DNA of 47,525 bases from Planctomycetota bacterium (lineage in GTDB: Bacteria > Planctomycetota > Planctomycetia > JALXBF01). The translations under genes were made by a program, and so were the position numbers. The notes beneath the pieces are model-generated. The model ran no database searches, was not told the DNA's origin, and saw only the letters and a list, made by a program, of their open reading frames with translations. Shown in pieces: positions 20,594 to 25,671 of the stretch. Every line of letters starts with the position of its first letter. Positions within the stretch are counted from its first letter, which is position 1. The stretch lies in the NCBI GenBank assembly GCA_026991575.1, contig JALXBF010000130.1, positions 1-47,525 on the forward strand, read 5' to 3'.

Positions 20594-21928
20594 TTAGCGT
20601 TTCTTCCGTTGGCGCACTTCGTAGACCCGCCACTTGCCTTTCTCGCGACGCAGCACGAGTTGCATCGGGGTACCGGACTGGCTGCCTTCCCGGACAACCA
20701 CTACCGCGGTTGTGCCGCGTGGCGGCAAGGCCCGGTCGACGTAGAGGTTGCCATACTTCCTGACCAGTTCGTTAACCTTCTTCTCGTCGGGCTTATCCTT
20801 GGTCAGTTCGGCCAGGTCGCCTTTGGCCTTGCTGGAGGTCAGGTCTTTGAGCGTCTTGAGGTCCTTCTTCTTCAAGGCAGCCACCCAGCGTTGGACGACC
20901 CCCAGGGGGCTGTTCGGGCTGATCTTCTTGGGCCGCGCGGCACGGCGACCAAAGCCTGGGCCGCCCATTCCGGGCCCGTAGCCGCCTTCCATACCGGGTC
21001 CCATCCCCGGGCCGTAACCGCCTTCCATGCCAGGGCCCATTCCTGGACCATAGCCACCTTCCATGCCGGGGCCATAGCCGCCTGGGCCTCCCATACCTGG
21101 ACCACCGGCCCCCGGATAGCCGCCTTCGCCACCGGGCCCCATGCCCGGGCCCATCGCACCCGGATAGCCGCCTTCACCTTCCGGTCCCATACCGGGTCCC
21201 ATCGCTCCGGGATAGCCACCCGGACCACCTTCGCCGCCGGCACCCGGATAGCCCCCCTCACCGCCCGGGCCCATGCCAGGCCCCATCGCACCCGGGTAGC
21301 CACCCGGACCACCCTCACCACCAGCGCCAGGATAGCCACCCTCACCGCCGGGCCCCATACCTGGGCCCATGGCGCCAGGGTAACCCCCTTCACCACCGGC
21401 TCCCGGGTAGCCACCTTCGCCACCCGGCCCCATGCCGGGTCCCATTGCTCCGGGATAGCCGCCCGGACCACCCTCACCGCCAGCCCCAGGATAGCCACCT
21501 TCCGCACCCGGGCCCATACCTGGCCCCCCGGCACCAGGGTAGCCATCGGGACCGCCTGCGCCCGGATAGCCCCCCATGCCCGGTCCCATGCCGGGCCCGC
21601 CCGGACCGGGCATTCCTCCAGGCCCCATCATGCCAGCGCCGCCGGGACCAGGCATACCGCCCGGGCCCATCATGCCGGCAGCGCCCTGAGGCCCAGCCTG
21701 CTGACCCCCCTGAGCCGCTTGTCCCTGTGGCGTGGCCTGCTGCTGTTGCTGCTGTGGTTGTTGACCGGGCTGAGCCTGCTGAGGCGGTGGTTGGCTCTGA
21801 GCCGATGGTGTGTTGCGAGCGATGGGCTGGTTTTCGAGCGACTCCAGGTCGACACCCTGATAGCAGCCCACGAGCCCGATAGTCGCGACAACACTACCGG
21901 CAAGCAGCCACATCCGGGGCGATCTCAT
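20594..21928 (-). CDS. Gly/Pro/Met-rich repeat lipoprotein
   Basis: 444 residues from ATG 21928 with cggag upstream; the frame extends further but without a signal sequence. The N-terminus is a lipoprotein signal with lipobox LVGC (C22). A Gln/Pro-rich stretch (about 43-75) leads into a low-complexity region of GPGMGPGGEGGYPGA-type units (about 78-327), rich in Gly, Pro, Met and Tyr. The C-terminal 117 residues form a basic compact domain (NSPLGVVQRWVAALKKKDLK, then a strand-rich end), which looks like an NTF2/DUF4878-type fold. Planctomycetes often have such lipoproteins; the role is unknown. The repeat tract is prone to length change by recombination. Confidence 0.8.
   Translation of the reverse strand: MRSPRMWLLAGSVVATIGLVGCYQGVDLESLENQPIARNTPSAQSQPPPQQAQPGQQPQQQQQQATPQGQAAQGGQQAGPQGAAGMMGPGGMPGPGGAGMMGPGGMPGPGGPGMGPGMGGYPGAGGPDGYPGAGGPGMGPGAEGGYPGAGGEGGPGGYPGAMGPGMGPGGEGGYPGAGGEGGYPGAMGPGMGPGGEGGYPGAGGEGGPGGYPGAMGPGMGPGGEGGYPGAGGEGGPGGYPGAMGPGMGPEGEGGYPGAMGPGMGPGGEGGYPGAGGPGMGGPGGYGPGMEGGYGPGMGPGMEGGYGPGMGPGMEGGYGPGMGGPGFGRRAARPKKISPNSPLGVVQRWVAALKKKDLKTLKDLTSSKAKGDLAELTKDKPDEKKVNELVRKYGNLYVDRALPPRGTTAVVVVREGSQSGTPMQLVLRREKGKWRVYEVRQRKKR
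20948..21697 (-). repeat. Imperfect tandem repeats coding for Gly-Pro-Gly-Met units
   Basis: About 750 bases of degenerate repeats inside the lipoprotein gene. Recurrent coding units are roughly 30-60 bases and translate as GPGMGPGGEGGYPGA or GGEGGPGGYPGAM. Synonymous differences among units suggest old repeats kept by protein-level selection, though recent copies may be mixed in. Confidence 0.85.
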
Positions 21929-22190
21929 AGCGTGGTCTCCGCTGGACAGCTCGCGTGGTCGGACCGACTCGGCCGCATCCCATTGTACCGCAGCCATATG
22001 TTCTCGAGGGACCACCGCTCCATCCCGCCTTGATCCCCGTTCCGCGTCGCCGCCACCGGCGGCCACGCCGTCAGCACCGCAGCCGACCGATTCGAAAAAC
22101 TCGCCGCACCGTTTTGCCGACAACTATTGTGAGACTGTCGCAGGCAAAAGCCTAGGCCAATCCAGCACGCGAACCGGGGAATCCTCAAGC
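21929..22190. promoter_or_regulatory. Divergent region (lipoprotein / thioredoxin-fold protein)
   Basis: 262 bases between divergent start codons. An A/T-rich island, gacaactattgtgag (about 22121-22135), is the likeliest promoter core; tattgt on the plus strand and acaata on the minus are possible -10 elements. A small AGGC-aaaa-GCCT hairpin sits at about 22141-22152. No clear -35 is visible. Confidence 0.35.
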
Positions 22191-24158: not shown

Positions 24159-25418
24159 TTAGTCCCAGCTGCTCTCGAAGTAGGACAGGAACAGCTCACC
24201 GCTGGCGCTGCCCACGCTGAGCGTCGCGCCGGGGCGGAACAGCCGCAGGTGGGCCGGGCTAATGTTGCCGGACATCCAGCCGGACTCGTGGTCGTCATCG
24301 TCTTCAGCCGCATCCATCGGATCCTCATAGTCGTCGTCCATCTCGTAGTCGTCATCGTCATCCCAAGAGGACTCGTCGTGGTCCTCCTGTTCGACACCCA
24401 GCTCGAAGTAGAACTCTGCCCAGGCGTAGCCGGACGCGTCAGTGCTCACGTAGCCGATGAGCTGACCGTCGATGTAGACCGGATAGACCTGATAAGGATC
24501 ACCCATGAACTCGATTTCCAGGTACGCCTCCAGCTCGAATTCGCCTTCCTCCATGGAGATTTCCAACGAGAAGTCGGCTCGGCCCCACGCACCACTGACC
24601 GGATCGTTCAACAGTGCGGTCAGAACCGTCTCGAACTCAATTTCATGCTCTGCAGCGCGGGCCCGGTCGCCCACATCGGCATCGGTCCAATCCTGGCCTG
24701 CGCCACCGTGCAGAAGATCGCGGCCCTGCTGACCGAGCAGCATGTCGATGCCCCCGGCACCAAAGAGGCGATCGTTGCCCAGGTAGCCGAGCAGCAGGTC
24801 GCTACCTGCCATGCCCCAGAGGAAGTCGGCACCGGCATTGCCGTGCAACTCGTCGTCACCGGCACCGCCTTTCAGCCGGTCACGGCCGGGGCCACCAACG
24901 AGTTTGTCGTCCCCGTTGGCACCGTGCAGGACATCGTTGCCGCGTCCACCATCGACGTAGTCGTCACCCTGGCCGGCCCGGACCCGATCGTTGCCGCTGC
25001 CGGCGTCGATCCAGGCATCCAGGTCTAAGCGACCGCCAAGAACCACGCGGTCATTGCCGCTGCCCGTCTCAATGTCCAACACCACGCCGGTGTTGCCGGC
25101 AGCAGCCAGCCATTCATCCACGTTGGAGGGGATGACGACACGATCGTTACCCCCCATCGTGTTGATCTGGATCCGATCGATCACCGCACTTGGATCGATC
25201 ACGTGCTCTTCGGTTCCCTGAGAGTTGGCGATCTTGACGACAAGGTTACCGTCGTCGACTTGCAGCTTCACGAAGTCTGCGCTGTCGGACCCCGTGATCT
25301 GAAGCGTTCCCCCCGCAAGACTGACCGACAACAGCTGCCTCTCTTCGAGCAGTTCGAGAGAGGGCCGATACGGCAGATGCGCATGGCGCGTGTTAGTAGC
25401 AGCGTAGTCACGTCCCAT
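24159..25418 (-). CDS. RTX-like calcium-binding repeat protein with acidic tail
   Basis: 419 residues from ATG 25418 (an adjacent ATG at 25421 adds one Met), with ggggg upstream. Residues 21-31 read LELLEERQLLS, the short motif planctomycetes carry near the start of large surface proteins. Residues about 137-245 hold hemolysin-type GGxGxD nonapeptides (GGRGNDVLHG, GGAGDDELHG, GGAGQD), which bind calcium in a beta-roll. Residues 344-379 are very acidic (WDDDDDYEMDDDYED). The protein is probably secreted or on the surface. It is preceded by a promoter, a GEMM-I-like riboswitch and an intrinsic terminator on the same strand, so c-di-GMP likely sets its transcription. Function beyond calcium binding is unknown. 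Confidence 0.85.
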   Translation of the reverse strand: MGRDYAATNTRHAHLPYRPSLELLEERQLLSVSLAGGTLQITGSDSADFVKLQVDDGNLVVKIANSQGTEEHVIDPSAVIDRIQINTMGGNDRVVIPSNVDEWLAAAGNTGVVLDIETGSGNDRVVLGGRLDLDAWIDAGSGNDRVRAGQGDDYVDGGRGNDVLHGANGDDKLVGGPGRDRLKGGAGDDELHGNAGADFLWGMAGSDLLLGYLGNDRLFGAGGIDMLLGQQGRDLLHGGAGQDWTDADVGDRARAAEHEIEFETVLTALLNDPVSGAWGRADFSLEISMEEGEFELEAYLEIEFMGDPYQVYPVYIDGQLIGYVSTDASGYAWAEFYFELGVEQEDHDESSWDDDDDYEMDDDYEDPMDAAEDDDDHESGWMSGNISPAHLRLFRPGATLSVGSASGELFLSYFESSWD

Positions 25419-25462
25419 CATCTGATCCCCCGCTGTTAGGTTGTGACCAACAAGGTTGACAT

Positions 25463-25488
25463 GAGAAAAAGACACGGTCCGGACCGTG
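25463..25488 (-). terminator. Intrinsic terminator of the riboswitch expression platform
   Basis: The minus strand reads CACGGTCCGGACCGTG (25488 to 25473), a perfect palindrome that folds as a 6-pair stem with a CCGG loop, followed by TCTTTTTCTC. It sits between the GEMM-I aptamer and the RTX start codon, the position of a transcription-attenuation terminator. Confidence 0.85.
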
Positions 25489-25504
25489 CGTGATCGCCAT
25501 GAGA

Positions 25505-25591
25505 ACCCGTCGGCAGCCTGGCGATCTCCGAAGGCGGAGACCCATGGCTTTGCGTCCCGGCCTCGCGACCGGTTTGCCCTTTTCGACGGTT
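25505..25591 (-). promoter_or_regulatory. Cyclic-di-GMP-I (GEMM-I) riboswitch aptamer
   Basis: Read on the minus strand, the leader holds AAGGGCAAACC, then a stem CCGGTC-GCGA-GGCCGG closed by a GNRA tetraloop, then GGGACGCAAAGCC, ATGGGTC, a second hairpin TCTCCG-cctt-CGGAGA, and GCCAGGCTGCCG. This is the conserved core of the GEMM-I class in the right order. The outer helix P1 pairs CCGTCG (25589-25584) with CGACGG (25512-25507), six perfect pairs. Family knowledge: GEMM-I RNAs bind c-di-GMP, and a P2 tetraloop docking on P3 is characteristic. An intrinsic terminator follows 17 bases downstream and the RTX-like gene starts 84 bases after the aptamer. Whether ligand turns the gene on or off cannot be read with certainty. 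Confidence 0.92.
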
Positions 25592-25643
25592 CCCACAGGG
25601 GAGGGCAACAGAGACGGGCTCTCGCCAGCAATCGCTCTACTGA

Positions 25644-25671
25644 CATCTACCTCACGGTTCGGGCCTGTCAA
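25644..25671 (-). promoter_or_regulatory. Sigma70-like promoter of the riboswitch-RTX transcript
   Basis: The minus strand has TTGACA (25671-25666) and TAGATG (25649-25644) with a 16-base spacer. Transcription would begin near 25637, about 45 bases before the aptamer. Confidence 0.7.

What the first reader, a model, noticed from the sequence alone, without database searches (positions are those of the whole stretch)
25505..25591. GEMM-I (c-di-GMP-I) riboswitch ahead of an RTX-like calcium-binding protein
The minus-strand leader holds the ordered GEMM-I core (AAGGGCAAACC, GNRA-capped P2, GGGACGCAAAGCC, P3 hairpin, GCCAGGCTGCCG) closed by a six-pair P1. It sits downstream of a TTGACA/TAGATG promoter and upstream of an intrinsic terminator and the start codon. 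It ties c-di-GMP signalling to a secreted or surface calcium-binding protein with the LEERQLLS motif, a link I do not know as described for planctomycetes.
Basis: partly seen in the sequence, partly recalled or inferred. Interest (0 to 1): 0.85.

Follow-up and report, generated by a model that had tools for sequence, protein, structure and literature searches.

The report
c-di-GMP riboswitch before RTX gene
The leader RNA of a planctomycete gene for a probable calcium-binding, secreted protein carries a genuine c-di-GMP-type riboswitch of a known kind; in related bacteria the same kind of switch often sits before a pilus gene, so the new part is which gene it is attached to here.

Summary
Rfam places one riboswitch at 25587-25508 (minus), 70.5 bits over the whole model. 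The best family is c-di-GMP-I-GGC (RF03167), a named subtype of GEMM-I; the parent RF01051 also passes. Bases equivalent to the c-di-GMP contacts are intact, and P2/P3 covary. The downstream gene (ATG 25421, 420 aa) has RTX repeats and a LEERQLLS motif. A terminator-like hairpin lies between aptamer and start codon. No second copy was found in the assembly.

The kind is known and common: 132 of 397 class genomes carry RF03167 above cut-off. Of 120 distinct class loci fetched, 52 precede a Flp pilin, 5 a TadG-like gene, 6 (window included) a LEPR-type ORF; 57 matched none of these patterns. Among 218 distinct aptamer loci, only the window has an RTX-like ORF in the DNA held, up to 2.5 kb downstream. 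Its own Flp pilin gene and two paralogues of the target lack the aptamer.

So: a new member of a known kind with an unusual target. Transcription attenuation is the likeliest mechanism. Its sign is unresolved: the terminator folds in both leader lengths computed.

The parts
25666..25671 (-). TTGACA, possible -35 element (proposed -10 TAGATG at 25649-25644 is weak)
   Evidence: Read from sequence; TTGAC[AT] enriched upstream of relatives' aptamers; not reported by the promoter scan
25613..25633 (-). upstream strand that can pair with the P1 3' strand and bases after it (25511-25492) (anti-P1), if transcription starts near 25637
   Evidence: Duplex -32.5 kcal/mol against -22.8 +/- 3.0 for shuffled upstream DNA, 4 of 500 as low; MFE fold of the long leader. 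Not general in relatives: 3 of 113 loci with z < -2
25584..25596 (-). P1 5' strand; 25593-25586 also complementary to the terminator 5' arm (-10.0 kcal/mol)
25508..25587 (-). c-di-GMP-I-GGC riboswitch aptamer (RF03167)
   Evidence: 70.5 bits, cut-off 59, full model; RF01051 72.2 bits; covariation in 31 class sequences
25499..25512 (-). P1 3' strand
25472..25489 (-). intrinsic-terminator-like hairpin followed by CTTTTTC
   Evidence: pairing probability 0.996 to 1.0 in the two leader lengths folded
24159..25421 (-). target gene, 420 aa: LEERQLLS motif, RTX nonapeptide repeats, acidic C-terminal part
   Evidence: PF00353 84.6 bits, cut-off 23; repeat motifs at residues about 158-228, pI 4.05; two paralogues of similar layout in the genome

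Best explanation
A c-di-GMP-I riboswitch of the GGC subtype in the 5' leader of a gene for an acidic RTX-repeat protein with a planctomycete LEPR-type motif. The aptamer binds c-di-GMP (inferred from family and intact contact bases). Binding locks P1 and decides whether RNA polymerase passes the terminator 18 bases downstream and so reaches the gene (inferred). Structurally the OFF sense is slightly favoured: the best-scoring leader partners of the terminator arms are the two P1 strands and J1/P2 segments, which a bound aptamer hides. The ON sense is not excluded.
For: Full-length covariance hit over the cut-off and to the parent model. Contact bases equivalent to Vc2 G20, A47, C92 invariant in the window and 30 class relatives (contacts per passages of PMC4744006; column mapping made by me from the recalled Vc2 sequence). 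P2/P3 covariation: 97.1% of cells paired, 9 pairs changed on both sides, 0 of 500 shuffles as high on these (1 of 500 for further pair types; the shuffles do not keep relatedness). Terminator-like hairpin between aptamer and gene, with only 50 bases from its end to the ATG, so the gene probably needs read-through. The genome has 3 GGDEF matches and 4 HD_5 (HD-GYP type) matches, one of them partial. RTX repeats by Pfam.
Against: No binding or expression data. The terminator is predicted with probability 0.996-1.0 with or without the upstream segment, so thermodynamics alone shows no switching. The anti-P1 helix and the P1-5'/terminator pairing would cross (pseudoknot). No orthologous leader exists to test conservation of platform or target. 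Flp-type relatives show no terminator excess (2 of 51 against 4.4 expected), so the platform is not the norm there. Against the OFF sense in particular: Vc1 activates, and for Bc1 c-di-GMP is reported to unfold the terminators. No EAL domain was found in the genome. The two core P1 pairs show no covariation.
Confidence: 0.7

Rival explanations
1. The aptamer and terminator make a mostly self-contained short RNA (standalone or c-di-GMP-binding decoy), and the RTX gene is transcribed largely from its own promoter or by leak.
For: The terminator is predicted in both leader lengths folded. In 14 loci of genome family f102 (picked by eye from the 23 with a terminator) the aptamer is followed by a strong terminator, and in 9 of the 14 the next ORF of 90 aa or more is on the opposite strand.
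Against: Here the gene follows on the same strand 50 bases after the terminator, with little room for a promoter; the arrangement is that of an ordinary attenuator.
Confidence: 0.12
2. The aptamer acts on translation or Rho-dependent termination rather than through the hairpin at 25489-25472.
For: Most Flp-type loci examined lack an intrinsic terminator after the aptamer (2 of 51 have one), so they probably use another platform. Passages of PMC11218506 describe a c-di-GMP-I riboswitch with terminators plus translational control.
Against: The hairpin with U-tract is well placed here; in the one fold that reaches the gene start, the region near it pairs locally, downstream of the terminator.
Confidence: 0.13
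3. The aptamer senses another ligand, such as 3',3'-cGAMP, as some GEMM-I variants do.
For: GEMM-I variants that sense c-AMP-GMP exist (PMC7266159 passages). The GGC subtype is modelled apart in Rfam, and the library search for its name gave three papers whose passages hold no ligand test.
Against: The base equivalent to G20 is G in the window and all 30 aligned relatives; the cGAMP variants carry A there (recalled).
Confidence: 0.05

Closest known systems
c-di-GMP-I-GGC riboswitch aptamer, Rfam RF03167 (clan CL00126)
   Same: Sequence and structure over the full model, 70.5 bits
   Different: Nothing seen in the aptamer itself; P1 is extended to at least 13 pairs
c-di-GMP-I (GEMM-I), Rfam RF01051
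   Same: Core, GNRA loop on P2, contact bases; 72.2 bits
   Different: GCUGCCG 3' core in place of the GUUACCG form of Vc2 (Vc2 letters recalled)
Vc1 riboswitch ahead of gbpA, Vibrio cholerae (PMC4744006, passages)
   Same: Class I aptamer controlling a secreted surface-colonisation protein
   Different: Other phylum, other protein; Vc1 activates, while the sense here is unknown
c-di-GMP-I-GGC aptamers ahead of Flp pilins in the same class
   Same: Same aptamer subtype, same class of bacteria, surface-related target
   Different: Pilin target, rarely an intrinsic terminator (2 of 51)
c-di-GMP-controlled RTX adhesins (LapA type; PMC6890996, passages)
   Same: RTX-type protein under c-di-GMP control
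   Different: In the passages seen, control runs through LapD/LapG-type proteins and transcription regulators, not a cis riboswitch; those adhesins are far larger (recalled)

Membership tests
c-di-GMP-I-GGC riboswitch (RF03167) | score over the curated cut-off, full model | tested here: met
   70.5 against 59 bits, positions 1-80
c-di-GMP-I riboswitch (RF01051) | score over the curated cut-off | tested here: met
   72.2 against 35 bits
c-di-GMP-I riboswitch | c-di-GMP contact bases G20, A47, C92 (Vc2 numbering) | tested here: met
   Present and invariant in 31 of 31 aligned sequences; mapping by motif, Vc2 letters recalled
c-di-GMP-I riboswitch | P2 and P3 supported by covariation | tested here: met
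   9 pairs changed on both sides, 4 in P2 and 5 in P3
c-di-GMP-I riboswitch | P1 supported by covariation | tested here: inconclusive
   Of two core P1 pairs one varies on one side only, one departs only by 4 unpaired cells
c-di-GMP-I riboswitch | binds c-di-GMP and changes expression | not testable with these tools
   Needs in-line probing and a reporter
RTX-repeat proteins (PF00353) | GGxGxDxUx repeats over the gathering score | tested here: met
   84.6 against 23 bits; repeat region matches solved RTX chains, 36 distinct sequences at E up to 0.01
RTX haemolysin or protease families | curated whole-protein score | tested here: not met
   All 6 NCBIfam matches far below cut-off, e.g. 57.7 against 1000; best stretches lie in the repeat region
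LEPR-XLL type planctomycete protein | match to the NCBIfam model (name recalled) | tested here: not met
   No such model among the 10 matches up to E 10 (HMMER filters drop most weak matches); the motif is recognised by eye only

The most novel reading that the evidence does not exclude
In this lone lineage a riboswitch type that often controls Flp pili elsewhere in the class has become attached to one of three paralogous LEPR-RTX surface proteins, and its leader uses an upstream anti-P1 strand to make a three-way switch (anti-P1, P1, terminator) not general among the relatives.
Probability: 0.3. Interest if true: 0.5.

Novelty: new member of a known kind. Interest (0 to 1): 0.36.

Why it matters
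It extends the likely reach of c-di-GMP riboswitches in planctomycetes to an RTX-repeat protein, and the comparison shows that in this class the switch sits on surface-related genes (Flp pilin, TadG-like, LEPR-motif) in about half of the loci examined (63 of 120). That gives a direct handle on how these bacteria may regulate attachment.

Tried and rejected
Orthologues of the target: none in genome contigs with the whole protein, none but its own among 397 class genomes with the C-terminal 168 aa. A profile of the C-terminal part from the three paralogues found it in 29 of 397 genomes, its own included. The 19 loci of other genomes then fetched hold no Rfam match over cut-off, but their flanks are 1.5 kb, so some leaders may lie outside. 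In those 19, 9 central ORFs have a LEPR-type motif and 4 have three or more RTX motifs.

General anti-P1 mechanism: not supported in relatives (mean z about +0.2; 3 of 113 below -2; loci whose 3' end my pattern missed were left out). Terminator platform in Flp loci: not supported (2 of 51 against 4.4).

Structure prediction of the target from a single sequence (421 residues, one residue before the ATG included): mean pLDDT 54, not used. A second weak RF03167 hit in the genome (16.6 bits, E 0.6) is treated as chance. The script printed nothing and was replaced.

Limits of the counts: searches list only part of the matches, best first, and use strict filters; I fetched most but not all of those listed. 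deduplicates by aptamer sequence; 9 loci missed by my core pattern were placed by their known coordinates in that call. Its TadG pattern is strict: by eye L019, L143, L145, L155 and L157 (counted among the 57) also look TadG-like. L096 was dropped as a duplicate of L095. L060 has an LEDRLVP ORF that the counting pattern does not match. The counts (145 loci; 144) include up to 33 loci from outside the class. Alignment A1 holds 30 of the 44 class loci tried; those with unclear 3' ends or near-duplicates were left out. In one search some loci hold less than 2.5 kb downstream. A longer read of one LEPR relative (L173) shows two RTX-like motifs, below the threshold of four. 'Class of Pirellulales' rests on three record titles whose contig lengths equal those of G handles.

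Full report
WHAT IS THERE. An Rfam scan of the whole window gives one RNA family match over its cut-off (one overlapping match of the same clan was left out by the tool): RF03167, c-di-GMP-I-GGC riboswitch, at 25587-25508 on the minus strand, 70.5 bits, all 80 model positions. The parent family RF01051 also passes (72.2 bits against 35). No other copy over cut-off was found in the 4.96 Mb assembly (97.8% complete, 191 contigs): a second RF03167 match has 16.6 bits and E 0.6.

RNA EVIDENCE. In an alignment of the window aptamer with 30 class relatives chosen for clear ends, the bases equivalent to the ligand contacts of Vc2 (G20, A47, C92; passages of PMC4744006) are invariant. The column mapping rests on the recalled Vc2 sequence. 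Under the Rfam structure 97.1% of cells are paired and 9 pairs are changed on both sides, 4 in P2 and 5 in P3; 0 of 500 shuffles reach these values (1 of 500 for further pair types), and sliding the partners lowers them strongly. The shuffles do not keep relatedness. The two core P1 pairs give no covariation support.

THE GENE. The ORF starting at ATG 25421 (420 aa) has RTX calcium-binding repeats (PF00353, 84.6 bits), an acidic composition (pI 4.05) and a LEERQLLS motif near the N-terminus. RTX toxin and protease families match in the repeat region and far below their cut-offs. Secretion and calcium binding are therefore inferences. Two other genes of the same genome have a similar layout (LEPR-type motif, RTX repeats, related C-terminal part; 120 and 98 bits). 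No c-di-GMP family match was found in the loci of these two genes or of the genome's Flp pilin gene (E up to 1; one search gives one Flp match over cut-off and one below).

COMPARATIVE CONTEXT. RF03167 is over its cut-off in 81 of 392 genomes drawn from the phylum and in 132 of 397 drawn from the class. I fetched most of the listed class hits, with 1.5 to 3 kb downstream where the contig allowed. Of 120 distinct class aptamers, 52 have a Flp pilin motif (GPTAVEYA type) within 700 bases on the same strand, 5 a TadG-like motif within 1.4 kb, 6 an ORF with a LEPR-type motif near its start, and 57 none of these patterns. Apart from the window, the LEPR cases come from three genomes of one genus (G549, G582, G706); in the four of their products read further (two genomes) there is a HEAGHGFGLRHQS-like stretch as in metallopeptidases. 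Among 218 distinct aptamer loci, now including loci from a pattern scan across many phyla, only the window has an ORF with four or more RTX motifs in the DNA held, up to 2.5 kb downstream. In the 80 listed loci of that scan, 7 have a Flp-type and 3 a type II pilin-like motif, and 70 neither, so the pilin link is not a rule outside the class. The window's genome is alone in its order in the collection. Titles of matching records (Aeoliella straminimaris, an uncultured Thermogutta, a Pirellulales bacterium) suggest that the class is that of the Pirellulales; this is inferred from equal contig lengths.

C-DI-GMP IN THIS GENOME. Three GGDEF matches, four HD_5 (HD-GYP type) matches, one partial, and no EAL match: probably enough to make and degrade c-di-GMP.

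MECHANISM. A hairpin with U-tract lies at 25489-25472, 18 bases after the aptamer and 50 before the ATG. This suggests transcription attenuation. The best-scoring leader partners of the terminator arms are the two P1 strands (about -10 kcal/mol each) and J1/P2 segments (-10.2 and -9.2). If bound ligand hides them, the terminator forms and the gene is off; this is my slight preference. Against it, the ensemble has the terminator at probability 0.996-1.0 in both leader lengths, Vc1 is an activator, and for Bc1 c-di-GMP is reported to unfold the terminators. A further feature is an upstream strand, 25633-25613, that pairs with the P1 3' strand and the bases after it at -32.5 kcal/mol, more strongly than P1 (-21.3) and better than 496 of 500 shuffles. 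It matters only if transcription starts near 25637, as the TTGACA at 25671 suggests; the -10 is poor. Relatives show no such strand in general (3 of 113), so it is either lineage-specific or chance. Shown: aptamer, hairpin sequence, gene order. Inferred: ligand, attenuation, sign.

WHAT IS KNOWN. Class I riboswitches ahead of surface proteins are established, for example Vc1 before gbpA (PMC4744006 passages), and a terminator-based platform is described for Bc1 (PMC11218506 passages). RTX adhesins under c-di-GMP control are known through LapD-type proteins (PMC6890996 passages). Library searches: c-di-GMP-I-GGC (three papers, passages of each); planctomycete + riboswitch + c-di-GMP (three papers, passages of one, listings of the others); riboswitch + Flp pil + c-di-GMP (five, listing only); riboswitch + c-di-GMP + RTX adhesin (two, passages of one); planctomycete/cyclic di-GMP/Flp/Tad (62 papers, 20 listed, listing only). 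In what I saw there is no report of this link; most subscription papers are not held, so this is weak evidence of novelty.

VERDICT. A genuine riboswitch, correctly read, of a known and widespread subtype; the RTX target is unusual, and the platform differs from the Flp-type loci. New member of a known kind.

Noticed in passing
L004, L012, L033, L034, L041, L047, L105 and others (52 of 120 distinct class loci): c-di-GMP-I-GGC aptamers sit ahead of Flp pilin genes in many genomes of the class, which points to riboswitch control of Tad pili; the library searches showed no report of it in what I saw.
   Followed up: partly
L056, L057, L070, L072, L074, L081, L084, L097, L100, L101, L103, L104, L109, L120 (all from genome family f102): Aptamer followed by a strong terminator; in 9 of 14 the next ORF of 90 aa or more lies on the opposite strand. 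Could be standalone or antisense-acting riboswitches.
   Followed up: partly
L050, L075, L079, L115, L137, L128, L134 (aptamers): Variant aptamers with GCTAAACC or GCCAAACC and CGGAAAG in place of GGCAAACC and CGCAAAG: a paired swap in the core (G-C to C-G) that looks compensatory.
   Followed up: no
L036, L039, L054, L095, L096, L132 (genomes G549, G582, G706): Three genomes of one genus each have two such riboswitches ahead of long LEPR-motif proteins; the four products read further (G549, G582) hold a HEAGHGFGLRHQS-like stretch.
   Followed up: partly
window 20594-22123 (-): ORF with long glycine-proline-rich repeats (PGGxGMGPG type); no Pfam or NCBIfam match at E up to 0.001.
   Followed up: no
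L064, L067 (G000:C65, about 112.5-113.1 kb): An open frame of 9015 aa with RTX repeats in the window's own genome.
   Followed up: no
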